The notes under the pieces are model-generated. The model was not told the DNA's origin. It saw only the letters and a program-made list of their open reading frames with translations, and did no database searches. Shown piece by piece: positions 33,868 to 52,255 of a DNA stretch of 64,000 bases. Made by a program: the position numbers and the translations under genes. How positions within the stretch are numbered: position 1 is the stretch's first letter; each line of letters begins with the position of its first letter. The DNA is from Thermococcus gammatolerans EJ3 (lineage in GTDB: Archaea; Methanobacteriota_B; Thermococci; Thermococcales; Thermococcaceae). The stretch is taken from the NCBI RefSeq assembly GCF_000022365.1, contig NC_012804.1:1488001-1552000 (forward strand). The letters run 5' to 3'.

Positions 33868-34860
33868 ATGAGGGGAGTTTTTCAAGAGGATGATAGGAAA
33901 ACTACTGACAATCTTTTTGGAAGAGACGAGGAGATACAGAACATTCTCTCAAAACTCATAACGAGAGACCCAGTTTTCATTGTTGGATATCGCCGTGTTG
34001 GAAAAAGTTCACTCGCTCATGCGGTCTCAAATCTTATTGTAGGCGATCACTTTGCTCATGTATACTGCGAAAGTGGATTCAACAACACTGGAGATATAAT
34101 AAATCGCGTAAAGGATACCCTCAACTCCAAAATAGAAACGAGGACAAAATCATTTGTTGTAGGAAAACTCATTGAAATTGGTCTTTCAAAGACCAAAGCC
34201 GACCGTTTGATTCAGGAGTTTGAAAATTCAACAATCATAATACTCGACGAGGCTCAGCGCGTCACCAATTCAGGGATAATAGACGATTTTCTTACGTGGG
34301 TCACGAAACACTTGGGAAGTACCACCCGAGTAATAATAACAGGATCAGAGGTGAGGCTCCTACATGGCTTATTCAAAAGAATCCACGGTAACCCGAACCG
34401 GATAATCACAATATACCCATTCGAGCAAAAAGTCGCCACGGACTTTATTTTGAAAGGATTTGAACAGAATGATTTCCCTATCTCACGAGAAGAAGCAAAG
34501 GAGATATATAGCACACTCGGGGGAACTCCCGGAGCTATAATTGCTGCAGCAGAACACATAATCCTCGAGGGGGAAGATATTGACACTGCCACTGAACGAG
34601 AAAAAACCACTGAAATGAAGATGATGATAGAAGAACTCAACAATATAGCCAGCGAGTACACTGTTGAAACCCAATCATTCGTGAAAAAGTTATCAATAAA
34701 TGAATGGCAAATATATGATCTTTCATTCTTCACCGAAGATGAAAAGAAGCTCCTCGAAGATCTTATACGCTTTGGGTTTATCAAACCGAATGAAAAAGGT
34801 TACATAGTGTATGACCCACTCATAAGAGAGGCCCTGAAAGAATGGGGCGGTGTGATATGA
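33868..34860 (+). CDS. archaeal STAND-like ATPase (COG1672 type)
   Basis: 330 aa. Walker A GYRRVGKSS (about residues 39-47), Walker B IIILDEAQRV and sensor IITGSE are followed by a C-terminal winged-helix-like region (FFTEDEKKLLEDLIRFGFIKPNEKGYIVYDP). This is the domain order of the archaeal ATPase family that is expanded in Pyrococcus and Methanocaldococcus. Role unproven (signalling, toxin-like or element maintenance). AT-rich compared with the chromosome. Overlaps the next ATPase gene by 4 bases. Confidence 0.8.
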   Translation: MRGVFQEDDRKTTDNLFGRDEEIQNILSKLITRDPVFIVGYRRVGKSSLAHAVSNLIVGDHFAHVYCESGFNNTGDIINRVKDTLNSKIETRTKSFVVGKLIEIGLSKTKADRLIQEFENSTIIILDEAQRVTNSGIIDDFLTWVTKHLGSTTRVIITGSEVRLLHGLFKRIHGNPNRIITIYPFEQKVATDFILKGFEQNDFPISREEAKEIYSTLGGTPGAIIAAAEHIILEGEDIDTATEREKTTEMKMMIEELNNIASEYTVETQSFVKKLSINEWQIYDLSFFTEDEKKLLEDLIRFGFIKPNEKGYIVYDPLIREALKEWGGVI

Positions 34861-35804
34861 AATATTACAGATACGAGGAGTGGCAACTCAAAAAGCACAT
34901 CAACGACTACTTCATCATAGTGACAGGCCCTCGCTGGACTGGGAAAAGCTACTTTATCAGAGAGTTTATGAAACGCTCAAACCTCAACTATATTATCATT
35001 GATGCATTCAAAGCATGGAAAGAGAAGAAATCGTGGCTTGAGCGAGCCATCATAAACGACACAAAGAAGAGCCTTCGGAATAGAGCCCCAGTAGGGGTCA
35101 TAACTTCATTCCGAAATGTAGAAGCGGAGAACTTTGATAACTTCAGAAGTTTCCTACGGGCACTGAAAGATGAAACCTACGTAATAATAGACCACGCCGA
35201 TTACCTCAGATATGCTCGTGGCATAGACTTCAGAGAAGTCGCCCAAGAATGGATTGACAAAAGGGACAAGGTGCATTTTGTTTTCGTCGCAAAAGGAACT
35301 CCCGCGTTATTGAGCTATCTTGGCCCCCAAGATCCACAATCTCCGTTATTTATGAGATATGAGAAATACGTTGAAGTTGTTGAACTCTCACCAAATGAGA
35401 CCATAAAATTCCTCGAAGACTTCTTGAGATTGTCAAAATACATGCATTCAAACTTCCCCGATGGATTTGAAACGTATCAGGACATCGGGGGACTTCGTGG
35501 CTATCTGAAAAAATTTGTCGAAGTTGGTTGCAATGAGCAGAAGCTCCGAGAACTGCTGAGAAACGAACTCAAAGAGGAAATCCGGGGCAAAAACACGTGG
35601 AGGGTTCTTGAAGTAATTGCGAGGTACACAAGGATCTATGGTTATGCCGATAAAAAAATCATAGAAAAGAAAGTTGGCAAGAATTTTGACAATCTCAGGA
35701 AGTCTATTGAAGAGTCACTCATCAACAATGGACTTGTTATGCCGGCTTCATCAAATACATACAAAACTCCAAAAATTCTCGCCAAATTTTTACCACAGAA
35801 ATGA
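34857..35804 (+). CDS. divergent archaeal ATPase with altered Walker B
   Basis: 315 aa. Walker A GPRWTGKS (about residues 24-31). The Walker B strand reads YVIIDHADYL, so the usual DE pair is replaced by D-H-A-D. The C-terminal part has a winged-helix look (RVLEVIARYTRIYGYADKKIIEKKVG). ATG 34857 overlaps the preceding stop (ATGA) behind GGCGGTG. As a coupled partner of the preceding ATPase it may form a hetero-complex, an inference from overlap only. Confidence 0.7.
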   Translation: MKYYRYEEWQLKKHINDYFIIVTGPRWTGKSYFIREFMKRSNLNYIIIDAFKAWKEKKSWLERAIINDTKKSLRNRAPVGVITSFRNVEAENFDNFRSFLRALKDETYVIIDHADYLRYARGIDFREVAQEWIDKRDKVHFVFVAKGTPALLSYLGPQDPQSPLFMRYEKYVEVVELSPNETIKFLEDFLRLSKYMHSNFPDGFETYQDIGGLRGYLKKFVEVGCNEQKLRELLRNELKEEIRGKNTWRVLEVIARYTRIYGYADKKIIEKKVGKNFDNLRKSIEESLINNGLVMPASSNTYKTPKILAKFLPQK

Positions 35805-36008: not shown

Positions 36009-36686
36009 ATGGGAATCCACATGAGTGTGTACATATATCTCCGCATAAGTACCGATAAACAAGACATCGACACCCAAATGGAATCAATAAAAGACTGGCT
36101 CAAGCGAAATAACGTCTCTGAGTACAAGATAATCAAAGACGAAGGCATCTCAGGAAGCACACCTGCAGAAAAACGCCCAGGTTTCTCCACTCTTCTCTCA
36201 TTGCTCCAAGAGAACGACGTACTTATAGTCTCAGAACTCACGAGACTCGGCAGATCCCTCAGCGATGTCATTATGACACTCAACAATCTCATGAAGAGAG
36301 GCGTCAGAATAGTATCAATCAAGGAAGGACTTGACAGCACACAGAACGAACTCCAATTCAAAGTCATGAGCACTCTCATAGCTCTTTTTGCAGACCTCGA
36401 AAGAGAATTCATCCGAAAAAGAACCATTGAAGGACTACAACGAGCAAAAGCCCAAGGAAAGAGAATAGGAAGACCAAAAGCACTTACTGAGGAGGACATT
36501 CCTGTACTTGTAAAGCTGTACGAGAAAGGAATGACACAGAAGGAAATCGCGAGAGCAATGAAAGTGAGCCCATCAACAATCGCACGAACACTGAAGAAAC
36601 TACGTGAGCAGGGAGTCATCGAGGAACGGAGAGTAGTCAAAGTAAACAAGAAGAAACTGAAAGAGGTGATAGACAATGCAAGATAA
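36009..36686 (+). CDS. serine recombinase (resolvase/invertase family)
   Basis: 225 aa. N-terminal catalytic domain with the nucleophile Ser in YIYLRISTDKQ, GISGSTPAEKRPGF, and the VSELTRLGRS block with catalytic arginines. A long E-helix (FADLEREFIRKRTIEGLQRAKAQGKRIGRPKAL) leads to a C-terminal helix-turn-helix (GMTQKEIARAMKVSPSTIARTLKKL), the Hin/gamma-delta arrangement. It probably resolves multimers or inverts a segment of the element. ATG 36009 fits the TATA distance; ATG 36021 is an alternative. Confidence 0.88.
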   Translation: MGIHMSVYIYLRISTDKQDIDTQMESIKDWLKRNNVSEYKIIKDEGISGSTPAEKRPGFSTLLSLLQENDVLIVSELTRLGRSLSDVIMTLNNLMKRGVRIVSIKEGLDSTQNELQFKVMSTLIALFADLEREFIRKRTIEGLQRAKAQGKRIGRPKALTEEDIPVLVKLYEKGMTQKEIARAMKVSPSTIARTLKKLREQGVIEERRVVKVNKKKLKEVIDNAR

Positions 36687-37030: not shown

Positions 37031-37064
37031 CAGCCAGATAGAAAGACCCCCTTGGTTGAGGGTA

Positions 37065-40000
37065 ATGGTGGGAACTTTGAAACCCGGCTACATCCTCAAG
37101 AGCACGAAATGGAAGGAGCCTTTTCTCGTCGAGATCGTGAACGAAAGTGGAGACACCATCATGGTGGGAGGCCACTACCTGAACTCCCGCAAGGCCGACC
37201 TCTACATACTGACGAAAGCCGACCTTGAGGAGATTGAAATCATCACAAACCCTCTTGACTTCAAAGGAGACCCAGAAGCAGCTGCCCTCGCAATCGAGGG
37301 AGAACGGTACCATTTCGCCTCACTCTATGACCCAATACTCGCGGTCAGCGTCTCGAAAATAGCACCCCTCCCCTTCCAGATCGACGCGGTCTACAACCAC
37401 ATCCTCAGAAACCCCGAGATACGCTTCCTCCTTGCGGACGACCCCGGTGCCGGAAAAACCATCATGGCAGGCCTTGTGATAAAAGAGCTCAAACTCAGAG
37501 GCTTGGCCGAGAGAATCCTCATAGTCGTTCCCGGCCATCTTGTACCCCAGTGGAAGAGGGAGATGAAAGAGAAGTTCCAGGAAGAGTTCACAATTGTCAA
37601 CAGAGAGATTTTCCGGACGACAACCGACGTTTGGAGACGTGAAAAACAGGTAATTGCCTCAATAGACTTCCTCAAACAAGAAGACATCCTCAAGAGCCTT
37701 GAGAATGTTGATTGGGACCTTGTGATAGTGGATGAAGCCCATAAGATGGCCGCGTATCGCTTCGGGAAGAAGATCTACCGCACGAAGAGGTACAAAGTGG
37801 GTGAGGTGCTCTCAAGGAACTCCACCCACATGCTCTTCCTCACTGCCACGCCCCACAAGGGAGACCCGGAAAACTTCCGTCTCCTTCTTGACCTCCTTGT
37901 TCCGGGCCTTTTCAGCGACAAAGAAATACTCCTTGAGGCAATAAGGAGAAACGAGAACCCCATATTCCTCAGACGTATGAAAGAAGACCTCGTGGACTTT
38001 GAGGGGAAGAAGATATTCAAGCCCAGGTACTCCCACACGGTGAACTTCAACCTCACCGACAAGGAGATCAAGCTCTACAACGAGCTCTCCCGCTACATCC
38101 ACTACCAGTACACCGTTCTCGAAGGGAGCAGGCGGAGCATAGTCTTCCCGCTCGTGATACTCCAGAGGAGGTTCGCATCGAGCACGTACGCACTTCTCCA
38201 GTCCCTCAGGCGCAGAAAAGCACGCCTCAAGGAATACCTTGAGAGCGGGAAGCTTGAAACCAAGGGCGTGCAACTCGACTTTGAGGACCTCCTTGAGCTC
38301 GAGGACGAAGAGGAAAGGGAAAGGTGGAAGGCCGAGCTGAGGCTCGAAGGCCTCCCCATAGTGAGGAAGAGGAAGCTCATAGAAGCCGAGATAAGAACCC
38401 TTGACGAGCTCATAAGGATGAGCGAAGAGCTGATAGCATCGGAGGAAGAGACGAAGCTCAAGAAGCTCAGAGAGACGCTGGACTTCATAGCGAGAGAACA
38501 CGGCGAGAAAGAGAAGATCCTCATCTTCACGGAGTTCAAGGACACCCTTGAGTACCTCGTGAACAAGCTCCAGGAGTGGGGCTACACGGTTACCTTCATC
38601 CACGGCGAGATGGACATGGAGACGAGGCTCCAACGCGAAAAGGACTTCAGGGAGTGGGCTCAGGTCATGGTTGCCACCGAGGCGGCCGGAGAGGGCATAA
38701 ACCTCCAGTTCTGTCATCTGCTCATAAACTACGACATCCCGTGGAACCCCAACAGGCTTGAACAGAGGATAGGAAGGGTGCACCGCTACGGTCAGAGGTA
38801 TCCGGTTCACATCTTCAACTTCGTGGCCAGAAACACGAGGGAGGGCATGGTACTCGAGAGGCTCCTCCACAAGATAGAGGAGATAAGGAAAGCCCTCGGG
38901 GATAAGGTCTTCGACGTTATCGGAGAACTCCTCGATGGGGAGAATCTGTACACCCTCCTCGCAGAGGTCGCCGTCATGCTCAGAGACCCGGACAGCGTCC
39001 TGAAGGAGGAAGAGCCAAAGTTCCAGCCTGAAGAAATCACGAAGAAGGCGGAAGAGCTCCTCGGGGAGAGCCTCGCGACGAAGCACATAGACCTGAGCAG
39101 GATAATGCGGCTTCTCGAAAAGGCCGAAGAGAACCGGCTATCGCCAGAGTACCTCGAACTATTCTTCCTCAAAGCCATGAAGCGCCTCAACGCGAGAATA
39201 AGGGAGAAAGAGCCACACGTTTATTCGATTGAGAGAACCCCCAGAGTCCTGAGGGAGATAGCCGAAAGAAAGGGCTACGGCACGGTGGAGCGTTCGTACA
39301 GGGCCATAACCTTTGACAAAGCAATCTCTGAGGAGAGGGACGACGTGGAGTTCGTCTCGTTTGGACATCCGCTCTTCGAAGCCCTCCGCGAGTGGGTTCA
39401 GGAGGAATATCTCAAAGAGCTCCAGCGCGGGGCGGTCTTCTACGACCCCAGGAACAGACTCCACGGCACCATCTGGTTCTTCGAGGGTGAAGTCCAGGAC
39501 GGCTTCAACAAGACGGCAGGCAAGACGCTCGTGGCGGTCTACGACGATGGCGAGAACCTTGAGGTCATAGACCCGAAGATAATATGGGACCTCGAACCGG
39601 CCAAAGATTCTCCAGAGGTGGAGGTTGAGTTCAGCCGGAGAGAGAACGCGATGATTTACGCCATGAAGGCCCTCGAAGAGTACAGGGACAGGCTTCTCAG
39701 GGAGAGGAAGAGGCAGGCGGAGATAAAGGAGAAGTACGGAGTGAAGTCCCTCAAGAAGCTGATAGACGACCTCGACTACAAGCTGGCCGAGTACGAACTC
39801 CTCCCGCCGGAAGAGAAGAAGAGGTACGCACTCACCATAAGGAACCTTGAGGAGAGGCTGAACCGTTATCGGAAGGCGCTGAAGGAACTGCCGGAAAAGA
39901 TAGCCAGGGAGACGAGCCTCATGGTGAGGCCTCCCGTCTTCATCGGGGCCATCTACGTGCTCCCGAGGGGAGGGATGGGAGAAGACCCGGCAATAGAAGA

Positions 40001-40358
40001 GATAGGAATGCAGATAGCCATGCAGTACGAGAGAGAGCAGGGAAGAAACCCCGTAGACGTCTCGAAGGAGAACCTCGGCTACGACATCTACTCCGAGGGC
40101 AACGGTGAGAAGAGGTACATAGAGGTAAAGGCGAGAGCCCACCTCGGGGACGTTGAGCTCACATGGAACGAGTACGTTACCGCGAAGAGGCTCCGCGACA
40201 AGTACTGGCTCTACGTTGTCGCATACGCCGCCGAGAAGCCGACCCTCTACATCATCCGTGATCCCGCTCACACCCTCAAGGTCGTGGAGAAGTACGAGAT
40301 AAGGTTCAAAGTCCCGGTTGAGGAGTGGAAAAAGAAGGGTAAGAAGGTTGAAGTCTGA
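37065..40358 (+). CDS. SNF2-family helicase with C-terminal DUF3883-like nuclease domain
   Basis: 1097 aa. SF2/SNF2 motor: Walker A LADDPGAGKT (about 123-132), VDEAH box (about 222-226), SFTATPH-type motif III (FLTATPHKGD), helicase C with ATEAAGEGINLQ and QRIGRVHRYGQ (about 567). The C-terminus (about 1000-1060) has GYDIYSEGNGEKRYIEVKAR, a DUF3883-type fold with the E-x-K of PD-(D/E)xK nucleases. Similar helicases are DrmD of DISARM and other methylase-linked defence loci. First gene of an operon with the methyltransferase 12 bases on. Codon use is GC-rich, unlike the preceding element genes. ATG 37065 chosen behind GAGGG. Confidence 0.88.
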   Translation: MVGTLKPGYILKSTKWKEPFLVEIVNESGDTIMVGGHYLNSRKADLYILTKADLEEIEIITNPLDFKGDPEAAALAIEGERYHFASLYDPILAVSVSKIAPLPFQIDAVYNHILRNPEIRFLLADDPGAGKTIMAGLVIKELKLRGLAERILIVVPGHLVPQWKREMKEKFQEEFTIVNREIFRTTTDVWRREKQVIASIDFLKQEDILKSLENVDWDLVIVDEAHKMAAYRFGKKIYRTKRYKVGEVLSRNSTHMLFLTATPHKGDPENFRLLLDLLVPGLFSDKEILLEAIRRNENPIFLRRMKEDLVDFEGKKIFKPRYSHTVNFNLTDKEIKLYNELSRYIHYQYTVLEGSRRSIVFPLVILQRRFASSTYALLQSLRRRKARLKEYLESGKLETKGVQLDFEDLLELEDEEERERWKAELRLEGLPIVRKRKLIEAEIRTLDELIRMSEELIASEEETKLKKLRETLDFIAREHGEKEKILIFTEFKDTLEYLVNKLQEWGYTVTFIHGEMDMETRLQREKDFREWAQVMVATEAAGEGINLQFCHLLINYDIPWNPNRLEQRIGRVHRYGQRYPVHIFNFVARNTREGMVLERLLHKIEEIRKALGDKVFDVIGELLDGENLYTLLAEVAVMLRDPDSVLKEEEPKFQPEEITKKAEELLGESLATKHIDLSRIMRLLEKAEENRLSPEYLELFFLKAMKRLNARIREKEPHVYSIERTPRVLREIAERKGYGTVERSYRAITFDKAISEERDDVEFVSFGHPLFEALREWVQEEYLKELQRGAVFYDPRNRLHGTIWFFEGEVQDGFNKTAGKTLVAVYDDGENLEVIDPKIIWDLEPAKDSPEVEVEFSRRENAMIYAMKALEEYRDRLLRERKRQAEIKEKYGVKSLKKLIDDLDYKLAEYELLPPEEKKRYALTIRNLEERLNRYRKALKELPEKIARETSLMVRPPVFIGAIYVLPRGGMGEDPAIEEIGMQIAMQYEREQGRNPVDVSKENLGYDIYSEGNGEKRYIEVKARAHLGDVELTWNEYVTAKRLRDKYWLYVVAYAAEKPTLYIIRDPAHTLKVVEKYEIRFKVPVEEWKKKGKKVEV

Positions 40359-40370
40359 GGAGGCGGTAGA

Positions 40371-43133
40371 ATGGAGGACAAGCGCTTTATTGAGGTTGCC
40401 TTCCCGGTCAAGGCCGTAAGTGAAGAGTCCGCAAGGGAGAAGAACATAAGGCACGGCCACATCTCTACCCTGCACATCTGGTGGGCAAGGCGCCCGCTGG
40501 CTTCTTCCCGCGCGACCAACTACGCCGCACTCATCCCAGCTCCAAAGGATGAGGAAGAGCTCGAACGGAAGAAGAGGTTCATAGCAAAGCTCTCGAAGTG
40601 GGAAAGTTCACTCGACGAAGAAATCATAAGAAGGGCCCGCGAGGACATCATGGAGTACTTCAGGGGGATACGCGACGACCCGAACCAGGAAAGGCCCCGC
40701 GTCCTCGACCCCTTCGCGGGGGGAGGCTCGATACCGCTTGAGGCCCTTCGCCTCGGCTGTGAGACGTACGCGGTGGACTACAATCCAGTTGCAGTTCTCA
40801 TCCTCAAGGCAGTCCTTGAGTATCCGCAGAAGTACGGGAAAAAGAAGAAGGGAGCGCTCGACCAGTGGATTTCAGGCAGGGACGAGGAAAAGGACTACGA
40901 CCTCGTGAGGGACGTGAAAAAGTGGGGTGAGTGGGTTCTCCAGGAGGCGAAGAAGGAGCTTGAGCGCTTCTATCCCAAAGACGAAGACGGCTACATCCCG
41001 GTCGGCTACATCTGGGCGAGAACCATAAAGTGCCAGAACCCGGCCTGTGGGGCAGAGATTCCACTGATGAGACAGTTCTGGCTCGCAAAGAAGAACAACA
41101 AGAAAGTGGCTCTCTACCCTTACGTGGAGGGGCATGAAGTCAAGTTCAAGATAGTTGGCGACGGCTACGAGCCTATGCCAGAAGATTTTGACCCCTCGAA
41201 GGGGACGGTGAAGGGAGCGAAGGTCACCTGCCCGGTCTGCGGCATGACCCACGACGCGAACACCACGAGAAAGCTCTTCCGCGAGGGCAAGGCCGGGCAG
41301 AGGATGGTGGCGGTTGTCCTCTACCACCCGGAGAAGAAGGGCAAGGTGTACCGCCTGCCAACGGAGAAAGACATCAAGGCCTACGAGGAGGCGAAGCGCT
41401 ATCTGGAGGAGAAGAGGGCAAAGCTCATGGAGGAGTGGGGCATCGACCCGGTACCAGACGAAGAAATCCTGAAGAAGTGTCATGAAGTGGACAGAATGCC
41501 TATGTATGGAATGCCAAAATGGGGGGATATCTTCAACGACCGACAAAAGCTCGCGCTGATAACCTTCGTCGAGAAGGTGAGGCAGGCGTACGAGAGGATG
41601 CTTGAAGAAGGTTACGGCGAGGAGTACGCGAAGGCTGTGGTGACGTATCTGGCGTTTGCGTTCGACAAGTTCTTGGCTCGTTCAACAACACTTTCTCGGT
41701 GGCACGTTACTCGTGAAACTATCGAGTATCCCCTCGGAAAGAACTCCCTCCCAATGCTCTGGGATTACATTGAACTCCAAGCATTCTCCGAGGCAAGCGG
41801 AGGCTGGAATACCGGGCTTGAATACATTGTGAATGTTATTGCCCATTGCTCCCAGTCCTCAGAGTTCCCCTCAAAAGTCCTCCAAGATTCCGCAACCTCA
41901 CTACCCTTCCCCGACGATTACTTCGACGCTGTCTTCACTGACCCCCCCTACTATGACAATGTGAATTATTCAGTACTGTCTGATTTCTTCTATGTCTGGC
42001 TCAAGCGTACAGTTGGAGACCTCTATCCTGAGCTGTTCATAACACCACTCACGCCAAAGAGCAAGGAACTTGTTGCTGATCCAAACAGATTTGGGGGGAA
42101 AGACGGTTCAAAAAGGTACTTTGAGGAGAGCATGAAACAGGCACTCAGGGAAATCCACCGCGTCCTCAAGCCGAACGGAATCCTCGTGCTCGTCTATGCT
42201 CATAAGACAACGGAAGGCTGGGAGACCCTCATAAACTCGCTCCTTGACTCGGGTCTCGTCCCAACGACTTCCTGGCCAATTCATACCGAGATGAAGAATA
42301 GGCTTATAGCAAAGGAGTCCGCCGCCCTTGCCTCATCAATCTACATCATCGCTCGCAAGATAGAGAAGCAGGGCGTCGGCTGGTTCGATGAGGTCAAGAG
42401 GGAGCTCAGAAAGACTCTTGAGGAGAAGCTCGACCAGCTCTGGAAGGAGGGCATAAGCGGTGCCGACTTCTTCATCTCGGCCATAGGCTCGGCCATTGAG
42501 GTCTTCGGCAAGTACGAAAAGGTGCTCGACTACGAGGGCAACGAGATAAGGGGAGACAGGTTGCTCCAGCTCGTGAGGGACATGGTGAGCGACTACGCCA
42601 TAAGGCAGGTTCTCAGGGAGGACATCTCCTCCGAGCTTTCACCACTCGCGAAGTTCTACGTGCTCTGGCGCTGGACTTACGGCGAGGCGAAGGTTGCCTT
42701 CGACGAGGCGAGGAAGCTTGCAACTTCAGTCGGCCTCGACCTCGAAAAGGAGTGGAACAAAGGGTTTATCGTGAAGGAGAAGGAGTTCATCCGCGTTCTC
42801 GGCCCGCAGGACAGGAAGCTGAAGGAGATAAAGGGCAACGACCTCATCGATGTCCTCCACAAAGCTTTGCTCCTCTGGCAGGCCAACAGGAAGAGGGAGA
42901 TGGTCGGCCTGCTCGCCGAGACAGGCTGGGGCGAGAAGGACGTCTTCTACAAGGTGGCCCAGGTCATCAGCGAGGTTCTGCCAAAGGACAGCAAGGAGAA
43001 GAAGCTCCTCGACGGCTTCCTCGCGGGCAGGGAGCACATAAAGAGGGCCATTGAGAAGGGCGATTACTCGGTCTTCAACGGAGAAGAGGAATCAGGAAAG
43101 CAGAAAAGAATTGAGCAGTTCATAAAGGGTTGA
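40371..43133 (+). CDS. DUF1156-family DNA adenine methyltransferase
   Basis: 920 aa. The N-terminal DUF1156 region ([37 protein letters not shown]) leads to SAM motif I DPFAGGGS (113-120). A zinc-ribbon insertion has C-x4-C and CPVC pairs (about residues 222-290). Motif [12 protein letters not shown] (about 524-533) marks an amino-methyltransferase (N6-A or N4-C). The long C-terminal helical part is probably for target recognition. It resembles DrmMI/DUF1156 methylases of defence loci, and would mark self DNA. Ribosome site GAGGAGGCGGT. The section around motif IV has more AT-rich codon use than its flanks. Confidence 0.88.
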
Positions 43134-43137
43134 GGCT

Positions 43138-43866
43138 TTATTCGGCTTTCTTTTCAATTTCCGGGGCTTTATTCCTGAGTTCCCGGATTTCACCTTCAAG
43201 CTCGGGAACCATCTCGACTATGTCCTTCCTGAGGAGGGGAAGGTGCTCGAGCTTGCCGTTGAGTATCGCAAGTATCCTGAGGCTGAGCATGAGAATGTAG
43301 ATTGAGAGCTCCGGGTTCTTCCAGTCTTCCAGCATCTTCTCGTAGAGCTTGATGAGGAGCGCTATCCCTTGGTCGAGCGTCATGTATCTCTCAAACTCTT
43401 CATCCGGCATCTCCGGATCGGAGGCTATTTCGAGAATGCTCTCCCTCATGGAGTTCAAAAGTCCCATCTGCCTCCTGATGTCGGTTCTTATTGAGTTCTT
43501 GAGCTCGTTCTCGTTGAGGATGTGCATGAGTTCGTCTATCTCGTCCATCACATCAGCGAGCTCTTCCTCGAATATCTTGAGCACTTCAGATTGAGCCTTG
43601 AGGTAATGTATCCTGCTCGCTTCGCTGGGCAGTACCTGGGTTATTCTGGAGATAAGGACGTCCCGCTTCTCATCCAGAAGCTCTCTCAGGCGGAGGAGTT
43701 CCCTGAATCTGTGAGTCTGGTGCTTCTTCCTCACGTAGGGGATGGCAGAGAAGTAGGGGTCTATGGCGTCAAGTACCCCCGTAAGCAGGTCATCGCTGTA
43801 CTTATCGATCACGACTTCAGGAAGTGCCGATAGTCCTTGACTCATTGTGAGAAGTTCTGCCGTCAT
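43138..43866 (-). CDS. helical hypothetical protein in the defence locus
   Basis: 242 aa, all-helical with leucine-rich charged helices and no recognised motif. It lies convergent to the methyltransferase (4 bases between stops) and divergent from the ATPase cassette. A TATA-like TTTATAAGG lies at about 43890-43898. It starts with ATG 43866 (GTG 43869 and ATG 43845 possible). It may be a regulator or accessory factor of the surrounding system; no evidence beyond position. Confidence 0.55.
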   Translation of the reverse strand: MTAELLTMSQGLSALPEVVIDKYSDDLLTGVLDAIDPYFSAIPYVRKKHQTHRFRELLRLRELLDEKRDVLISRITQVLPSEASRIHYLKAQSEVLKIFEEELADVMDEIDELMHILNENELKNSIRTDIRRQMGLLNSMRESILEIASDPEMPDEEFERYMTLDQGIALLIKLYEKMLEDWKNPELSIYILMLSLRILAILNGKLEHLPLLRKDIVEMVPELEGEIRELRNKAPEIEKKAE

Positions 43867-43980
43867 CACGATCCCGAAAGAGAAGGCTCCTTATAAAGGA
43901 TGCTCTCTGACGGACTCGTTGGGTCTGAAGAAGAGAGCGTGGGTCAACTGCTCGAAAGGACGCCTGCTCCATAAACCTTA

Positions 43981-44010
43981 TATACACTTTTGGACGTCAC
44001 CCATAATGGG
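43981..44010. repeat. direct repeat, left copy, flanking ATPase cassette
   Basis: 30 bases matching 45117-45146 at about 26 of 30 positions; the core TTTTGGACGTC is identical. It overlaps the ATPase promoter region and sits inside a larger palindrome. Confidence 0.75.
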
Positions 44011-44022
44011 GGGTGTCCAAAA
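43988..44022. promoter_or_regulatory. palindromic operator before the ATPase gene
   Basis: Arms TTTTGGAC (43988-43995) and GTCCAAAA (44015-44022) with inner CACCC/GGGTG arms, between the TATA box TTATATAC (43978-43985) and the ATG at 44023. It covers the expected transcription start, which suits a repressor site, possibly for the ATPase's own product. Confidence 0.55.
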
Positions 44023-45111
44023 ATGCTCTTTGATGTCCAGCCAAAGACCTCAATTGATGAGCTATTCGGAAGGAGGGCCGAGTACCTGAGTTTCCTTGAT
44101 GCAATTGAAAAGCGAAGGAATTTCTTCATAATCACGGGGCCAAGGAGGATAGGAAAGACGAGTTTTCTTTATGCAAGCCTCAACGAGCTTGAGAAGGAGT
44201 ACGGCATTCCTTACGCTGTAATTGACGCAAGAGCGGCCACTTCATTGAACTCAAAATATCCGCAGAGAGTTATTGCAGAACGTCTCTACAAGGCCATAAT
44301 AAGGAAAGGATTTGTGGGAGGGGTAATCTCAAAGATAAAAGGCCTCAAAATCGGTGGAATCGAGATTGAGACTCAGGATAAGAATCCTGACATTATAGAC
44401 GTTCTCTCAGCGATAAACGAGGGTAATGAACTTGCCATAATAGCTTTTGATGAGGCCCAGTACCTCAGATTCTCAAATGAGGACCTCACAAAGCTCTTCG
44501 CTTGGGTTCTCGACAGCCTTCACAACATAGTGCTCGTGTTCACAGGTTCCCAGGTAGGCGTTCTTGACAACTTTCTGAGGCTTGATGAAGGCAATGCGCC
44601 TCTTTTCGGGAGATATGAGGTAAGAATACCTCTACCACGTTTCAACCCCTCAGAGAGTCTTGAATTCCTGAAGAGGGGATTTGAAGAGTACGGAATTGAA
44701 ACCAATGAACGTGACCTTCTTCCCGTGGTGAAGGTACTCGATGGTGTCCCTGGTTGGCTGGTACATTATGGCGCCCACAGAGTTGATGGGCTTCCTCACG
44801 ACGAAGCCATTGAAAAGGTTCTGGAAAAGGCCATGACATACGTGCAAACAGAATTCCAGGAGCTGGACAAACTTTCTCCCCGCTATCGGGTTGTGATGAG
44901 GGCTATTGCCAAGTTGAGTGAGGGAAAAGGATATGCAAGATGGGAGCGAATAAAGAGCCTTGCAGAAGAGGAACTGGGAGATGAGATAGACGAAAAGTCC
45001 ATGAGAAACTACCTGTCAAAACTCGTTGATTATGGCTTTCTGGAGACCATCGGGTATGGAAAGTACAGGATTCCGGATCCAGTCATGTACAGGGTCTTCA
45101 GGAGAATATAG
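44023..45111 (+). CDS. archaeal ATPase (COG1672 type), cassette within defence locus
   Basis: 362 aa. N-terminal FGRRAEYLSFLDAI box, Walker A GPRRIGKTS (about residues 37-45), Walker B IIAFDEAQYLRFS, sensor VFTGSQVGVL, and a C-terminal winged helix (YARWERIKSLAEEELG...YLSKLVDYGFLETIGYGKYRIPDPV). It is a canonical member of the archaeal AAA/STAND ATPase family. Third such ATPase on the element, with GC-richer codons than the first two. The ATG at 44023 has GGGGTG upstream. The gene is enclosed by imperfect 30-bp direct repeats. Confidence 0.85.
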   Translation: MLFDVQPKTSIDELFGRRAEYLSFLDAIEKRRNFFIITGPRRIGKTSFLYASLNELEKEYGIPYAVIDARAATSLNSKYPQRVIAERLYKAIIRKGFVGGVISKIKGLKIGGIEIETQDKNPDIIDVLSAINEGNELAIIAFDEAQYLRFSNEDLTKLFAWVLDSLHNIVLVFTGSQVGVLDNFLRLDEGNAPLFGRYEVRIPLPRFNPSESLEFLKRGFEEYGIETNERDLLPVVKVLDGVPGWLVHYGAHRVDGLPHDEAIEKVLEKAMTYVQTEFQELDKLSPRYRVVMRAIAKLSEGKGYARWERIKSLAEEELGDEIDEKSMRNYLSKLVDYGFLETIGYGKYRIPDPVMYRVFRRI

Positions 45112-45116
45112 TGAAT

Positions 45117-45146
45117 TGTACATTTTTGGACGTCCCCCATTATGGG
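45117..45146. repeat. direct repeat, right copy, flanking ATPase cassette
   Basis: Matches the left copy at 43981-44010 in the same orientation. It begins 6 bases after the ATPase stop and lacks the GTCCAAAA right arm found at the left copy. Confidence 0.75.
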
Positions 45147-45228
45147 TGCCCTCTCAATCTGCCCTATCTTGATAATGTGACCGGAAAGCCCAAATACTCC
45201 CAGGGGTATATGGTTCGGAGGTGTAACC

Positions 45229-47877
45229 ATGGAGCTGAAGCCGTTTTACCAGATCGCCATTCCCCACGATGATATAAAGGAGGGGAAGTTCACCCTTGAT
45301 ACTTTCGCCGCTGACCTCTGGAGCGTTTATCAGAACAAGGGGCCTGAGGACTACAGGAACCCGGAGCTCTTCTGGGAGAGAACGTACATCACGAGCGGAC
45401 TGAGCGTTCTCCTTGATATAGCAAGAAAGAGGCTCATCGATGGCGTTGGAGATGCTGTGATACAGCTCCAGACTCCCTTCGGTGGGGGTAAGACACACTC
45501 GCTTATAGCACTCTATCACAAGGCCAGAGAATGGGGAGCAAACGTTGTTGTTCTCGACGGTACGGCCTTTGACGCCAAAGAGGATATTCTTTGGGAGGAG
45601 CTTGAGCGCCAACTTACTGGAAAAGTCGAGCTATTGAAAGGTAAGACTGCACCAGGCAAGAAGAAGATCTCAAAGATCCTTGAAGAAAACGCCCCAGTGC
45701 TCATTCTCATAGACGAGCTCCTTGAGTACATGGTGAAAGCGGCGGGAATAAGAGTTGAGGATACCACACTCGCTGATCAGACCCTCGCCTTTATGCACGA
45801 GCTCACTGAAGCCGTGAAAAAAGAAGACAAGGCCCTACTCGTCATGACGCTTCCATCAAGTATCCTCGAGCACTACTCAGAAAAAGCCGAGGAGTACTTT
45901 CAGAAGCTTCAAAAGATAGCCGGCCGCGCTCAGAGGGTTTTCACTCCAGTTCAGGAGGAGGAAGTCCACGACGTCATCAGAACGAGGCTTTTCAAGAGGA
46001 TTGATGAGACCGAGATGGAAGCCGTTGTGAAGCGTGTGGTAGAGTACCTTGAGAAGGAGGGCCTCATCCCGGAGGGCCTCAACGCCTATCAGTACCGCCA
46101 GAGGTTTCTCAGGAGCTATCCATTCCAGCCAGAGGTCATTGATGTTCTCTACCACCGCTGGGGCAGTCTGCCGAAGTTCCAGAGAACAAGAGGCGTGCTG
46201 AGACTTCTCTCCATAGTTGTTCACTCACTCATCGGGAGAGATGTGCCCTTTATCAGGCTCTCCGACTTCGATTTGAGTGTCAAAACGCTCAGGGACGAGC
46301 TCATAGACATCATAGGGGAGAGCAGGTACTATTCCGTTCTTGATGCGGACATTCTCTCACCCAGCTCTGGTGCAAAACGGGTCGACAGGATGGTCGGTGA
46401 ATCCTACGAGCACTATCGCGTGGGGACGAGAGCGGCAACCGTCATCTTTATGTACTCCTTCTCTGGCGGGGACGTGAAAGGAGCCACTACGAAGGAGATA
46501 AAGCTCTCCTGTGCCGATACAAGGTACTCAAGCAGTATAGTGGGAGACGCCATCCTATACCTCAAGGATAATCTCCTTTATCTCCATTACCGCGATGGCC
46601 GGTACTTCTTCAGTCTCGAGCCAAGCCTCAACAAGCTCGTTGTGGATGAGATGAACAACGTAAGCGAGGAGCAGATAAGGGATGTTGAACACGAACTGCT
46701 GAAGGGTCAGCTCAAGGGGCGGTACTTCAAGGTCTATCTGTGGCCGAGTAAACCAGTGGACGTTCCTGATAGCGATCCAAGCTTGAAACTCGTTGTTCTC
46801 CCCGAGTATGACAAGGAGAAGGTTCTCCAAATCCTGCAATCCTACGGGGGCAGCGAAAGGGTCCACAAGAACACCCTCATCTTCCTCGTTCCAAGGGAGA
46901 CGGAGAGGGCCAGTTTCAACAGGCTCGTGAGAAGGTATCTTGCATGGAAGATCATCGACGAGAAGGCAAAGAAGGGTTCTCTGGAGCTTACTTCAGAGCA
47001 AAAGGAAGACGTGAAGGAGAATTTGAAGCGAGCACGGGAGGACATCGTTCAGAAGATAGCAGAGCTTTACAGGCTCGTACTGCTTCCCACTCGTGGAGGC
47101 TACGAAGAGCTTGACCTTGGCATGAAGCCTGTGGGCATCAAGAAGACCATCGAGGAGCTCATCTATGAGAAGCTCAGAGAGGAGGGTAAGCTCGTCGAGA
47201 AGATGGCTCCAGTGGTCATCGAGATGAAGTATCTGGATGGGAAGGAGTACGTTCCAACGAAGGCACTCTACGAGAGCTTCCTCAAGACTCCAGGGATGCC
47301 ACTCTTGAAGAGTAAGAGCGTGCTTATAGACGCGATAAGGCAGGGAGTAAGCGAGGGGCGCTTTGGATTGGGATACCTCACCGGAGAGGAGGTAACCTGC
47401 GAGTACCTCGGTGAAAGGCCCACGGTTACCCTTGACGAGAAGGAGGTCATCGTGAACAGGAAGTACTGCGAAGAGCTGAGGGCAAGAGCGAAGGCTGAAG
47501 CTGAGGCAGAATCTGAAGCTCAAGCTATAGCTCAAGAGAAAGCTACAGCTGTGAGCGTAGCTGAAGCTTCAAGAGAGGAGTGGAAGCCTCCAGCAGTCAG
47601 GGATAAGCAGGCTGTGCTTGTGCCTCCAGAAACAAAGGGCAGAGAAGAGGTTGTGGGGAGTCAGGTAGCGTCCATTCACCTGCACCTGACACTGGGACCC
47701 GGAACTGGAGGGCTGAGGGACATCTTGAGGGCGTTGAACCTACTGAAGACCAAGTTTGAGAGGGTTACCATAGAGATAAAGGCAGAGAATGGCCACATGA
47801 GTCAAACAGAGTACGAGAACCTGCTTGAGACGTTCAGACAGCTGGGTATTGACGTTGAAGAACTTGGGGAGGAGTAA
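45229..47877 (+). CDS. DUF499-family ATPase
   Basis: 882 aa. DUF499 P-loop ATPase: Walker A in LQTPFGGGKTHS (about residues 81-92), Walker B LILIDELLEYM (about 157-167), then a large helical region. An Ala/Glu-rich linker (about 745-780) joins a C-terminal alpha/beta domain (HLHLTLGPGTGG...TIEIKAENG). DUF499 proteins occur next to DUF1156 methylases and SNF2 helicases in defence islands, and probably power or gate the nuclease complex. ATG 45229 behind GGAGGTG. It is separated from the methylase by a convergent gene and the ATPase cassette. Confidence 0.85.
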   Translation: MELKPFYQIAIPHDDIKEGKFTLDTFAADLWSVYQNKGPEDYRNPELFWERTYITSGLSVLLDIARKRLIDGVGDAVIQLQTPFGGGKTHSLIALYHKAREWGANVVVLDGTAFDAKEDILWEELERQLTGKVELLKGKTAPGKKKISKILEENAPVLILIDELLEYMVKAAGIRVEDTTLADQTLAFMHELTEAVKKEDKALLVMTLPSSILEHYSEKAEEYFQKLQKIAGRAQRVFTPVQEEEVHDVIRTRLFKRIDETEMEAVVKRVVEYLEKEGLIPEGLNAYQYRQRFLRSYPFQPEVIDVLYHRWGSLPKFQRTRGVLRLLSIVVHSLIGRDVPFIRLSDFDLSVKTLRDELIDIIGESRYYSVLDADILSPSSGAKRVDRMVGESYEHYRVGTRAATVIFMYSFSGGDVKGATTKEIKLSCADTRYSSSIVGDAILYLKDNLLYLHYRDGRYFFSLEPSLNKLVVDEMNNVSEEQIRDVEHELLKGQLKGRYFKVYLWPSKPVDVPDSDPSLKLVVLPEYDKEKVLQILQSYGGSERVHKNTLIFLVPRETERASFNRLVRRYLAWKIIDEKAKKGSLELTSEQKEDVKENLKRAREDIVQKIAELYRLVLLPTRGGYEELDLGMKPVGIKKTIEELIYEKLREEGKLVEKMAPVVIEMKYLDGKEYVPTKALYESFLKTPGMPLLKSKSVLIDAIRQGVSEGRFGLGYLTGEEVTCEYLGERPTVTLDEKEVIVNRKYCEELRARAKAEAEAESEAQAIAQEKATAVSVAEASREEWKPPAVRDKQAVLVPPETKGREEVVGSQVASIHLHLTLGPGTGGLRDILRALNLLKTKFERVTIEIKAENGHMSQTEYENLLETFRQLGIDVEELGEE

Positions 47878-48138: not shown

Positions 48139-48597
48139 ATGGGTAGGTACAACCTATACATACCTGCCTCCACAAAGTACCTTCTCAGAAGAGCTTCAAA
48201 GAGACTACTCACCACCCAGATAGAGCTGGCCCGTAAAATCGCTGATGGAAAGGTTGATTTTGACGACATATACACCTGGGGCCTTGATTTGAGGGATAGA
48301 GAGAGGATAAGATTCCTCTACGAGACTGAGAAAGAATTCGCCTTCAAGGCCGTTTTTCCCGTGCGTACGGAGAACCCCAGTGAGGTAAGGGCCAGTATTC
48401 TGGCCGTAAGTGAGATGGTTGAGAGGATCGTAAAGAAGTTTTACCAGGACCATGAAGACCTCCACGAGGCTATCGGAAGTGTTCATACCGCCCTCTGGAG
48501 AATACAGCACACCGACGGACTCACAGAATGGGACAAGAAGCGCCTTGCAAGGCACGTAGAAGAGATTCAAAAGCTTCTCAGGGGTGATGAACAATGA
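48139..48597 (+). CDS. hypothetical protein, first gene of replication operon
   Basis: 152 aa, helical and charged; the N-terminus (RYNLYIPASTKYLLRRASKRLLTTQIELARKIADGKVDFDDIYTWG) could include a small DNA-binding helix pair. No family recognised. It is translationally coupled to the primase-like gene (ATGATG overlap) and headed by the palindromic promoter, so a repressor or initiator-accessory role is plausible. Confidence 0.6.
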   Translation: MGRYNLYIPASTKYLLRRASKRLLTTQIELARKIADGKVDFDDIYTWGLDLRDRERIRFLYETEKEFAFKAVFPVRTENPSEVRASILAVSEMVERIVKKFYQDHEDLHEAIGSVHTALWRIQHTDGLTEWDKKRLARHVEEIQKLLRGDEQ

Positions 48598-50603
48598 TGC
48601 CGAGGCACGTCAGCCTTATCAGCGACGAAGACAGGGCAATCCTCGAAAACAAGGAGGCTCTTTCTGGCATGATACGGAAGTACTTGGAGTTTCTCTATGA
48701 GAACACGAAGCAAGAGTACTGGTTCGAGGTGAGAATTCTTGGGTTGGATGGAAGCGTAAAGCGTAGGATGTTCAGAATCAAGGACATTGGAAGGGCTACG
48801 AATTACATCATCAGAGAAATGAACTCTGACAGCAGAATAAAGGGCATATACGTCACGATAAACCCGGCTGGAGGTCAGAAAGGAGGTTCCTTTACGAACG
48901 ATGACATACTTGAAGTGATAAACCTGCCAATTGATGTGGATGTCTTCCACAATAGGGCCCCATCAGAGGTTGAGGTATCAGCAGTGAAGGGAGCGATAAA
49001 GAGAGCCATCCAGGAACTGTTCGGGAAGTACAACTTCAGATACATGGTGGTTTTCTCGGGCTTTGGCTTCCATGTGTACCTCAAGGTGAATCCCGTTGAG
49101 GTTGGTGACAGAAATTGGCAGGCGGCTTTTCGGGAGGTTGGAAGAGAACTCGCAGACGAGTTTGAGAGGGTGCTCAAAGAGAGCATAGACCCAAACTACT
49201 CCCATCTCGTTGAGGATGCCGTGGATAAGAGCGTGTACAACCCTTCACGCATTATGAGGGTTGCCTGGACTGTGAACAGGCGAAAGATAGGTGGAACAAT
49301 CTACGAGGCCGTTTCAAAGATAGTTGAAATCTCCGGAGCGAACAGGCTTGAAATTGATGAACTCGTCAAGAAAAAGCTCCGAGAAGGTATTACAACGCGG
49401 GAAGAGCTCCACATTGAGAATATGGGTGGTACAAGGCTCAACAGTGAGGAGAAAGACGCCTTGGTCGAAGCCCTGAAAAAGTACTACATGCCGGGTAGGA
49501 GACACAACCTCGTCCTCGGATTTGCCGCCTTTGCCTGGCACAAAGGGATTCGAGTGGAAGACACACTCGAGGTTGTGAGAAGAGTGTACGTTGAGACCGG
49601 GGATAGTGACCCTTGGGAGGACCGGGAGAGAGCAGTTCTGGACACGTACTCAGCAACACTGAAGAACTACAGGAGCTACCTGGGGAAAGGAACTATCTGG
49701 GAACTCAACAGGGCACTCCGCTCATACTACCAGCGAGCAATGGTAAAAAAGAAGGAGGAACCAAGTGAGTACTCCGTAACAAGTGCTCAAAAGGTTCTCT
49801 CCAATGATTTTGACCTTCTTGAGTGGCTTATCGAGCGTACCTCCGATATAATCAAAGAGGTGGACGAAAAGAGTGGCAGGGTAACCTATAAAGTCTCGTT
49901 TGTCGTTGAAAGAGCAGGAAAAGTAGAGACAATCGTTCTCAAGAACACGGAGAGGACAGAAAAGGAGAAGATGTTCTATGCTCTCAACGAGGACTTTATG
50001 GCCCACTTTGGGGTTTACATAGTTGACCCGCTTTCAATCAGGAAGCTCAACAGGCAGGAAAGGAGTAAGTTCAATGACGTTCTCGCCAAGATAATGCTGG
50101 ATTACTACGCATTCGTTACAAGAAACGCGAAGGAGATTGTAATAGAGGAGTACGAAGATGTCAAGAACATTTTCCTGGATATCATCGAGACCGAGGTCCT
50201 TGAGATAGTGAAAATTGACGAGTTGAATTCAATAAGCGGAGACCGTGTCGACGAGCTATTCCGGAAGAGGATAATGATCTACGCTGAAAACGAGAACAGA
50301 GTCTACTTTGACCCCCATCTTCTCGAGTATGGGGCTGAGACCCGTGGATTCGCGCGAACTCTCGCCAAGTTCCTCCACAGAATTGGGGTCATTGACAAGA
50401 AAACCTGGAGAGAAGTCAGACGGAGCAAGTCTTTGAGGAATGGGAGACACGTGTATCTCTATTACCTGATTTCAGACAGATTCTTTGACTTCCTTGAGAA
50501 AGAGAACGCCATAAAGCCCCCCATAAAGACCATTGATGAGTACTTGGATGAACAGGAGTACGTGGATCTTGATGAGATTGCAGGGGAGAGTGTTGCGGCG
50601 TGA
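48594..50603 (+). CDS. primase-like replication protein (archaeo-eukaryotic primase type)
   Basis: 669 aa. The N-terminal half shows the archaeo-eukaryotic primase pattern: acidic motif LPIDVDVFH (about residue 110), the S-G-x-G-x-H motif SGFGFHVYLKV (about 155-165), and a basic motif RIMRVAWTVNRRKIGG. A primase C-terminal-like helical domain follows (YYMPGRRHNLVLGFAAFAWHKGI). The last third (about 400-669) is unassigned. Comparable primase/polymerases serve Thermococcus plasmids such as pTN2. Its stop overlaps the helicase start (GTGA). ATG 48594 and 48597 are both possible. Confidence 0.75.
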   Translation: MMPRHVSLISDEDRAILENKEALSGMIRKYLEFLYENTKQEYWFEVRILGLDGSVKRRMFRIKDIGRATNYIIREMNSDSRIKGIYVTINPAGGQKGGSFTNDDILEVINLPIDVDVFHNRAPSEVEVSAVKGAIKRAIQELFGKYNFRYMVVFSGFGFHVYLKVNPVEVGDRNWQAAFREVGRELADEFERVLKESIDPNYSHLVEDAVDKSVYNPSRIMRVAWTVNRRKIGGTIYEAVSKIVEISGANRLEIDELVKKKLREGITTREELHIENMGGTRLNSEEKDALVEALKKYYMPGRRHNLVLGFAAFAWHKGIRVEDTLEVVRRVYVETGDSDPWEDRERAVLDTYSATLKNYRSYLGKGTIWELNRALRSYYQRAMVKKKEEPSEYSVTSAQKVLSNDFDLLEWLIERTSDIIKEVDEKSGRVTYKVSFVVERAGKVETIVLKNTERTEKEKMFYALNEDFMAHFGVYIVDPLSIRKLNRQERSKFNDVLAKIMLDYYAFVTRNAKEIVIEEYEDVKNIFLDIIETEVLEIVKIDELNSISGDRVDELFRKRIMIYAENENRVYFDPHLLEYGAETRGFARTLAKFLHRIGVIDKKTWREVRRSKSLRNGRHVYLYYLISDRFFDFLEKENAIKPPIKTIDEYLDEQEYVDLDEIAGESVAA

Positions 50604-52255
50604 ACGCCCAGATAACCATTCTGGGGCCTCCAGGGACGGGAAAGACCTCTGCTCTCATCAATCTCTACAAATACTTTATCGGAGACGCTTCCACGGATGT
50701 TACAAGCTTCGTGCAACGATACGGTCTCAATAAGCTCATCACGAGAAGGGATTACACGAGCGATGAGGTTCTCTTTCTTACCTTTACAACTTCCGCGGTC
50801 AGGGTTCTGAAAGAAAGAGGAATTTACAACGCGTACACTCTGCACAGTTACATCACAAGGGTTCTTATGCGGAATAAACTCCTCACACCAGCAGGATTCA
50901 TGAGAGAGCCGTTTATTGCCGCGATGATGGAAATGAACTATGGCTATGACTTCAGGGATCGGTTCAGTTCACACCCGTCAAACGTTGCCGAGATAAGGTA
51001 CAACTACTATTTCAACGTCTATTATGATAAAACCAGCAAGGAAATTCTCGAAATTGTAAAACAACAGGAGAAAGACGCCGTGTACCAGAGAATAAGGGAT
51101 TACGTGGCATGGAAGGAGGAGAAGGGCATTTTTGACTATGTGTCAGTTCTCAGGTACTTCCTTACAACCACTCCCGCCACACTCGCTCCAGAGAAAGAGG
51201 GCAGTGAGCCCAGAGTCATGATAATAGACGAAGCCCAGGACTTCAGTCCCCTTCAATGGGCAGTTGTGAAGAGATTGAGGAGCATCGGTCTCCTTGACTA
51301 TGTAGTCGCGGCTGGAGACCCGAATCAGTCAATATATTCATTCCAGGGGGCTGATCCTTCCGAGTTTGAGAATTTCATGGCATCTGGTACAGTTGTTGTA
51401 TTGAAGAGAAGTTATAGACTGCCCAAGCAAGTGTATAACAAGGCAGAGATGCTTACGCGATGGCTCAGAACCCACTTCGAGTATGAGCCACGTGAAGAAC
51501 TTGGTAAGGCCATTACAGAGTACCTGAAGAAGTCCAATCTCCTCAAGATGAATAGAACGACTGGTGAGAAAGTGATTCAGATTCTTGAGAGCGTTATGGA
51601 TGAAGATAAGACCGTGTTCGTTCTTACACGAACAAACAAGCAAGCGAGAGAGCTCGAAAAGTACATCATTGAGGCGGGATACAGAGTCTCAAGGATAAAG
51701 AATGACGACAGCCTTTATGACCTCCTTGAGGAAGTCATCGCCTTCGAGGAGAAAAGGAGCATTGGGATGAGGCTGTTCTTCGCTGTAACTTCTTTGAATG
51801 AGGAAGGAATTCGGCTTCGGTCCCTGTTCAAAACGCCCATAGAAGCCATGATGAAGGTTGAAGAATGCCTCACTGAAGGAGAGCACCCCAATGATGAAGA
51901 CAATAAAGCAGGCAAGTGTTCTGATGACGTTCTATCCCTTGCGAGGTTCATTGAGAACCATTACCTTGATGTTCTTGATCCGGAAGAGAAGCGTGTTTTG
52001 GCTGGGCTCAGAAAGAAGAGGAATGGAAGGGCAATCTACGTGGACACGATGCACGCCGCAAAGGGCGAGGAGGCTGATGTTGTCATTGTCATTGATTTCG
52101 TGAATCGCAAGATTGAGAAGGAGATTCAGAGGGATGAGAACGCTCTGAAGGAGGAGGTGAGGGTTCTTTACGTTGCGATGACTCGTGCACGAGAGAGGCT
52201 TTATGTTCTCACAAGCAAGTCAAAGAGGTCTGTGTTGGGGTACGTGAGGTTTTGA
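50600..52255 (+). CDS. superfamily 1 (UvrD/Rep-like) DNA helicase
   Basis: 551 aa. Motif I GPPGTGKTSAL (9-19), motif Ia-like FTTSAVRVL, motif II MIIDEAQDFSPLQW, motif III GDPNQSIYSFQGADP, motif V DTMHAAKGEEADVV and motif VI LYVAMTRARERLYVL. All helicase motifs are intact, with reduced 1B/2B insertions. It is probably the replicative or accessory helicase of the element, cotranscribed with the primase. GTG start at 50600 overlaps the primase stop. Confidence 0.9.
   Translation: MNAQITILGPPGTGKTSALINLYKYFIGDASTDVTSFVQRYGLNKLITRRDYTSDEVLFLTFTTSAVRVLKERGIYNAYTLHSYITRVLMRNKLLTPAGFMREPFIAAMMEMNYGYDFRDRFSSHPSNVAEIRYNYYFNVYYDKTSKEILEIVKQQEKDAVYQRIRDYVAWKEEKGIFDYVSVLRYFLTTTPATLAPEKEGSEPRVMIIDEAQDFSPLQWAVVKRLRSIGLLDYVVAAGDPNQSIYSFQGADPSEFENFMASGTVVVLKRSYRLPKQVYNKAEMLTRWLRTHFEYEPREELGKAITEYLKKSNLLKMNRTTGEKVIQILESVMDEDKTVFVLTRTNKQARELEKYIIEAGYRVSRIKNDDSLYDLLEEVIAFEEKRSIGMRLFFAVTSLNEEGIRLRSLFKTPIEAMMKVEECLTEGEHPNDEDNKAGKCSDDVLSLARFIENHYLDVLDPEEKRVLAGLRKKRNGRAIYVDTMHAAKGEEADVVIVIDFVNRKIEKEIQRDENALKEEVRVLYVAMTRARERLYVLTSKSKRSVLGYVRF

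What the first reader, a model, noticed from the sequence alone, without database searches (positions are those of the whole stretch)
43981..45146. ATPase gene boxed by 30-bp direct repeats inside the defence locus
A COG1672-type ATPase gene sits between imperfect (about 26/30) direct repeats at 43981-44010 and 45117-45146. The left copy also forms a palindromic operator over the promoter. The unit of about 1.14 kb interrupts the methylase-DUF499 gene order. It looks like a movable cassette or a regulated module added to the system, for example an addiction or sensor ATPase.
Basis: partly seen in the sequence, partly recalled or inferred. Interest (0 to 1): 0.65.

Follow-up and report, generated by a model that had tools for sequence, protein, structure and literature searches.

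The report
Relocating ATPase cassette with palindromic ends
In heat-loving Thermococcus-type archaea, one DNA-binding ATPase gene lies between two related palindromic repeats, turns up at several unrelated places in different genomes, and has repeatedly dropped out leaving a single repeat behind, so it is a passenger in this antiviral locus and not a part of it.

Summary
In detail: 26/30 direct repeats at 43981-44010 and 45117-45146 flank a COG1672/SSO1545-type ATPase, and the left copy is a 35-bp palindrome over the promoter. Host: Thermococcaceae. The defence locus is an Hma system (HmaA, HmaB, HmaC).

In 94 family genomes the ATPase-plus-two-repeats unit (repeat-to-repeat step 1130-1136 bp) is intact in 7, at unrelated sites: two spots in Hma loci, a tRNA/EF1B hotspot, and a third site. 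Single-repeat "solo" sites exist at all three kinds of place, including directly after HmaB, where another genome has the full cassette. Solos are chimaeras of left-repeat-left and right-repeat-right (best case 44/45 and 43/45), so recombination between the repeats removes the ATPase. Five of nine Hma loci have neither ATPase nor repeat. Related ATPases without the right repeat stay at one fixed site per clade.

Best reading: a relocating, self-contained ATPase cassette. The left palindrome is probably an autoregulatory operator for the ATPase's own winged-helix domain; palindromes before the start codon recur across the wider ATPase family. How it enters new sites is unknown: no transposase, no clean empty site. 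Addiction or sensor function is untested.

The parts
43978..43984 (+). TATA-like promoter element (TTATATA) of the ATPase gene
   Evidence: sequence; TTTATATAC/TTATATAC is shared by the clade A copies at the same distance from the ATG
43981..44010 (+). left copy of the 30-bp direct repeat
43988..44022 (+). left palindrome L, TTTTGGACGTCACCCATAATGGGGGGTGTCCAAAA, covering the expected transcription start and ending at the base before the ATG; probable autoregulatory operator
   Evidence: operator role inferred
44023..45111 (+). cassette ATPase, PF01637 archaeal ATPase with C-terminal winged helix (362 aa)
   Evidence: PF01637 2.7e-16; MCM_C winged helix 1.4e-8; 2QEN, 2FNA; model and fold match
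45117..45155 (+). right repeat R, TGTACATTTTTGGACGTCCCCCATTATGGGTGCCCTCTC; 45117-45146 is the direct-repeat part
   Evidence: the same kind of right end in the other intact cassettes and in the solos
43138..43869 (-). context: gene left of the cassette (weak DUF155-like hit); in other Hma loci it precedes a PIN gene that is deleted here
37056..40358 (+). context: HmaA helicase
   Evidence: PADLOC HmaA 3.6e-192
40371..43133 (+). context: HmaB DUF1156 methylase
   Evidence: HmaB 1.8e-148
45229..47877 (+). context: HmaC DUF499 ATPase
   Evidence: HmaC 4.9e-133

Best explanation
The feature is a self-contained, relocating single-gene cassette of about 1.2 kb: promoter, left palindrome L, SSO1545/Orc-like AAA+ ATPase with a C-terminal winged helix, and a related right palindrome R. 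SHOWN by comparison: L and R travel with the ATPase; the unit sits at unrelated loci in at least three genera; it is not part of the Hma core; solo sites are left-of-L/right-of-R chimaeras at the same places, so the ATPase and one repeat are lost by recombination (crossover or replication slippage) between the repeats, much as solo LTRs form. INFERRED: the ATPase's winged helix binds L and represses its own promoter, and R is a second site for the same protein or a boundary. NOT EXPLAINED: how the cassette enters new loci. Exchange of defence-island fragments by recombination is the most economical view, because the hotspot copy in G022 carries a fragment of the HmaB 3' end.
For: Intact L-ATPase-R units in G000, G001, G022, G046, G063, G078, G083, step 1130-1136 bp. 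Unrelated flanks. Solos: G067 directly after the HmaB stop, where G001 has the cassette; G082 and G075 at the G078/G083 site, G082 matching 44/45 to L-left and 43/45 to R-right of G083; eight hotspot-type solos. G082 and G030 keep the TATA box although the gene is gone, which favours loss over a never-filled site. Hma loci of G022, G036, G059, G072, G011 have no palindrome. The ATPase is under purifying selection: dN/dS 0.03-0.09 where measurable, synonymous sites near saturation across contexts, yet L and R remain. In the ATPase tree G001 (genus g2, Hma) joins the hotspot copies of genus g1 (99/97) and not G003, its own genus. The G022 flank matches the HmaB tail over 52 bp, 0 of 2000 shuffles. 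Sister clades B, C and P lack R and each sit at one shared site. Palindromes within 60 nt of the start codon: 74% of 27 family ATPases against 9% of 414 control genes, p=2.6e-10, rows related. AlphaFold model has a C-terminal winged helix (287-349) and matches 2QEN, 2FNA, then Orc/Cdc6.
Against: No clean empty site (flanks joined without any repeat) was found; where alleles without a cassette exist, neighbouring genes were also lost or replaced, so insertion as a unit is inferred. The direction solo-to-full is not strictly excluded. In the hotspot, G017 and G039R carry R-like sequence up to the left edge of the repeat, so crossover points vary or later mutation blurred them. For G067 the chimaera signal is modest (left 31 vs 25, right 24 vs 19 of 45). 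No binding data support the operator role. The L/R covariation test was not significant (8 of 24 permutations).
Confidence: 0.68

Rival explanations
1. Passive gene with two operators: the ATPase is an ordinary autoregulated gene, L and R are two binding sites (or R is a terminator-like hairpin), and short repeats merely make the gene prone to deletion; its scatter is ordinary defence-island turnover.
For: Palindromes before the ATG are common in this ATPase family without any flanking R. Solos need only recombination or slippage across short repeats; G083-type L and R share only about 16 bp. Hma junctions are hypervariable. Serine-resolvase relatives are absent from most solo genomes.
Against: R is kept with the ATPase at unrelated sites although synonymous sites are near saturation, and only the R-bearing clade is scattered while clades B, C and P stay put.
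Confidence: 0.4
2. A transposase-less mobile element (MITE-like or IS200/605-like) whose palindromic ends are used in trans by a recombinase or transposase elsewhere in the genome, carrying the ATPase as passenger.
For: Both ends carry related palindromes, also readable as 33-nt inverted repeats at 88%; several unrelated sites.
Against: No target duplication or clean empty site found; crossover points in solos seem to vary; the resolvase next to HmaA has no close relative in most hotspot and genus-g4 solo genomes. A trans-acting Y1 transposase was not searched for.
Confidence: 0.15
3. The ATPase is an accessory component or regulator of the Hma system, with R acting as an operator upstream of HmaC.
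For: Present between HmaB and HmaC in two genomes of two genera and as a remnant in G041.
Against: Absent from 5 of 9 Hma loci; 6 of 8 clade A ATPases are not at an Hma locus; G022 has an Hma locus without it and the cassette far away in the same contig; elsewhere R is followed by unrelated sequence.
Confidence: 0.07

Closest known systems
SSO1545 / PAB2304-type archaeal AAA+ ATPases (PF01637, COG1672; PDB 2FNA, 2QEN)
   Same: Whole-length sequence match (2QEN 5.7e-44), same fold (TM about 0.8), Walker A GPRRIGKT, Walker B FDEAQ, C-terminal winged helix
   Different: Members known to me are described only as genes or structures; here one clade carries a second palindrome after the gene, is scattered over several sites, and leaves single-repeat scars
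Solo LTRs and deletion between flanking direct repeats
   Same: One chimaeric repeat is left where a repeat-gene-repeat unit stood
   Different: Repeats are about 16-31 bp palindromes, one doubling as the gene's promoter region; no retroelement genes
MITEs and IS200/605-like palindrome-ended elements
   Same: Short, palindromic ends, no transposase inside, several sites
   Different: No target duplication or trans transposase shown; carries a conserved ATPase gene; the solo keeps both outer halves
Orc1/Cdc6 initiators (binding next to their own genes is from general knowledge)
   Same: AAA+ core plus winged helix, next-best fold matches after the archaeal ATPases; conserved sites next to the gene
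   Different: Sequence identity only about 13-17%; no sign that the cassette is a replication origin
Hma (DUF499-centred BREX-related) defence system (PMC8565338, PMC12839542)
   Same: Flanking genes are HmaA, HmaB, HmaC
   Different: The cassette ATPase is not a core gene and is absent from most of these loci

Membership tests
PF01637 / SSO1545-type archaeal ATPase | Pfam score above the curated cut-off | tested here: met
   60.5 bits against 33.2
PF01637 / SSO1545-type archaeal ATPase | Walker A and B motifs and C-terminal winged helix | tested here: met
   invariant G39, R41, R42, G44, K45 and F142-D143-E144 in 14 relatives; winged helix by Pfam and model
Hma / DUF499-centred system (flanking genes) | HmaA helicase, HmaB DUF1156 methylase, HmaC DUF499 ATPase in order | tested here: met
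   PADLOC hits 3.6e-192, 1.8e-148, 4.9e-133
Hma system (cassette ATPase as component) | constant presence in the locus across related genomes | tested here: not met
   intact in 2 of 9, remnant in 1, solo repeat in 1, nothing in 5
Insertion sequence or transposon | transposase inside the element | tested here: not met
   the only gene found in the unit is the ATPase
Insertion sequence or transposon | target-site duplication at a clean empty site | tested here: inconclusive
   no clean empty site; flanking DNA also differs
Flanking-repeat recombination (solo-LTR-like loss) | single-repeat allele at the same site, made of left-of-L and right-of-R | tested here: met
   G082 against G083: 44/45 and 43/45; further solos in the hotspot and in the Hma locus of G067
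Type II toxin-antitoxin / addiction module | two-gene toxin-antitoxin operon | tested here: not met
   single gene between the repeats; single-gene addiction not testable here
Autoregulated winged-helix regulator | protein binds the palindrome over its own promoter | not testable with these tools
   indirect: palindrome near the ATG in 74% of relatives against 9% of controls
IS200/605-type passenger (PATE-like) | TnpA Y1 transposase available in trans | not tested
   not searched

The most novel reading that the evidence does not exclude
The Orc-like ATPase itself binds both terminal palindromes and promotes the cassette's own excision or relocation, making this a minimal mobile element run by an AAA+ winged-helix ATPase with no transposase or integrase of its own.
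Probability: 0.1. Interest if true: 0.85.

Novelty: new variant of a known kind. Interest (0 to 1): 0.5.

Why it matters
SSO1545-type ATPases are numerous in Thermococcales genomes and no function is established for this group that I know of. A clade whose operator-like palindrome is repeated after the gene, which moves between defence loci and leaves recognisable scars, gives concrete tests: does the ATPase bind its own palindromes, and is the gene unstable or beneficial when present? It also shows that an ATPase lying inside an Hma locus need not be a component of the system, a caution for guilt-by-association calls.

Tried and rejected
First protein coordinates were one base off and were corrected. 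First motif scans missed a base and were rerun; first right-end family pattern had the wrong spacing and was rerun (then 48); first upstream-palindrome statistic had wrong orientation for minus-strand loci and was rerun (then 37). Serine resolvase as dedicated mobiliser: rejected as a general mechanism, no close relative in most solo genomes. Concerted evolution of L and R: not significant. HmaB-tail match: significant for G022 against G067 and G001, weaker for G063, weak for G025. Plasmid and phage carriers: none. Of 17 genome contigs matches to the core pattern, the 4 Thermococcales ones are cassette or solo loci already seen; the others are in unrelated bacteria, and the two viral-contig matches appear to lie in ordinary sequence, so both are taken as chance. 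Literature searches found no description of these repeats; most subscription papers are not held.

Full report
WHAT IS THERE. The window lies at 1,488,001-1,552,000 of a 2.05-Mb single-contig genome; related named records are Thermococcus and Thermococci. The repeats at 43981-44010 and 45117-45146 match at 26 of 30 bases. A pattern made from them occurs nowhere else in the window or the genome, even with 3 mismatches, and never in shuffles. The left copy forms a 35-bp imperfect palindrome (43988-44022) between a TATA-like box (43978-43984) and the ATG at 44023. The gene encodes a 362-aa PF01637 ATPase with a winged helix that matches PDB 2QEN and 2FNA over its length. It lies between HmaB and HmaC of an Hma defence locus.

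RELATIVES. Among 94 genomes of the family, the closest ATPases (80-89% identity, 'clade A') are in G022, G063, G046, G078, G083, G001 and G003. All but G003 have both repeats, at a step of 1130-1136 bp. L and R are alike in all of them while the surrounding DNA is unrelated: Hma locus in G000 and G001, a tRNA-pair/EF1B hotspot in G022, G046 and G063, and a place beside a secreted-protein gene in G078 and G083. The hotspot name rests on recognising tRNA-like and EF1B-like sequence by eye. In G003 the right repeat is missing and sequence resembling a tRNA 3' end follows the stop codon.

SOLO SITES. The finding predicted single-repeat sites between the DUF1156 and DUF499 genes. One exists in G067, directly after the HmaB stop, the very spot where G001 carries the whole cassette. 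The clearest case is genus g4: G082 has a single palindrome at the G078/G083 site, its left 45 bases matching G083 L at 44/45 and its right 45 bases matching G083 R at 43/45; G075 also has a single palindrome there. Hotspot-type solos occur in G014, G017, G025, G033, G038, G042, G030 and beside the G039 remnant, and their left and right halves mostly follow L and R of G022. G082 and G030 still have the TATA box, so a promoter remains without its gene; this favours loss over a never-filled site. G016, G037, G070, G039 and G041 keep L and a decayed start of the gene.

NOT PART OF HMA. Of nine Hma loci above 80% HmaB identity, two have the intact cassette, one a remnant, one a solo repeat and five nothing. 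The apparent older order is HmaB, a minus-strand PIN/DUF155-like pair, a membrane or secreted protein, HmaC (G022, G036, G059). The cassette stands in place of the secreted-protein gene in G000 and G041, and in place of the PIN pair in G001. G022 has an Hma locus without cassette and the cassette far away.

TRANSFER. In the ATPase tree, G001 (genus g2) joins the hotspot copies of genus g1 with 99/97 support, while G000 (g1) and G003 (g2) lie outside. The hotspot flank in G022 contains a 52-bp match to the end of HmaB (0 of 2000 shuffles), so a piece of an Hma locus of the G001/G067 kind appears to have gone to the hotspot with the ATPase. Synonymous sites are near saturation between contexts while dN/dS is about 0.03-0.09 where it can be measured: an old, maintained gene.

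REGULATION. A palindrome near the start codon is a family trait: 74% of 27 relatives against 9% of 414 control genes reach the same score. The sequence differs from clade to clade, and so do residues of the winged helix. The model has a standard winged helix at 287-349, and after 2QEN and 2FNA the best fold matches are Orc/Cdc6 proteins. Autoregulation is therefore likely but not shown. Sister clades B, C and P have no R and each sits at one shared place, so the second repeat goes together with scatter, although few clades were compared.

MECHANISM AND LIMITS. Loss by recombination between the repeats is well supported. Entry into new loci is not: no transposase, no clean empty site, no target duplication, no plasmid or phage carrier. 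Solo crossover points seem to vary along the repeat, which speaks for general recombination or slippage and against a fixed-site recombinase, though mutation could blur this. A serine resolvase near HmaA is missing from most solo genomes. The solo core in the hotspot is better kept than its flanks (87% against 52%), which may mean that it is still used or that some solos are young. In G039 the palindromes bracket a different, 464-aa ATPase, as if the repeats also help to shuffle neighbouring genes.

VERDICT. A real feature: a new variant of a palindrome-bounded, relocating gene cassette, mostly passive on present evidence. Interest 0.5.

Noticed in passing
window 43138-43869 (-): In other Hma loci this gene precedes a minus-strand PIN-domain gene; in the window the PIN gene is deleted and this protein ends with EIEKKAE, the last residues of the PIN protein elsewhere.
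   Followed up: partly
L117:12213-13298 (G022) and equivalents in G036, G059, G011, G001: A conserved protein of about 360 aa with a hydrophobic start and no Pfam hit lies just before HmaC and is missing in the window, G041, G067 and G072.
   Followed up: partly
window 36018-36686: A serine resolvase lies beside HmaA; close relatives (59-63%) are found in 5 other genomes with this type of Hma locus, at or near the locus.
   Followed up: partly
L075:9904-11567 (G039): The same palindromes bracket a different 464-aa AAA ATPase plus a remnant of the cassette ATPase, 1645 bp apart.
   Followed up: partly
window 48594-52255: A 669-aa protein without Pfam hit followed by a UvrD-type helicase lies downstream of HmaC in the window and in G022, G036, G059 and G067.
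   Followed up: no
L057, L055, L061 upstream of the ATPase: Other clades of these ATPases carry their own palindromes right before the ATG, for example CCCCCACCAGTAACTGGTGGGGG.
   Followed up: partly
window 33868-35804: Two overlapping ATPase genes of the same broad family lie upstream of the resolvase.
   Followed up: no
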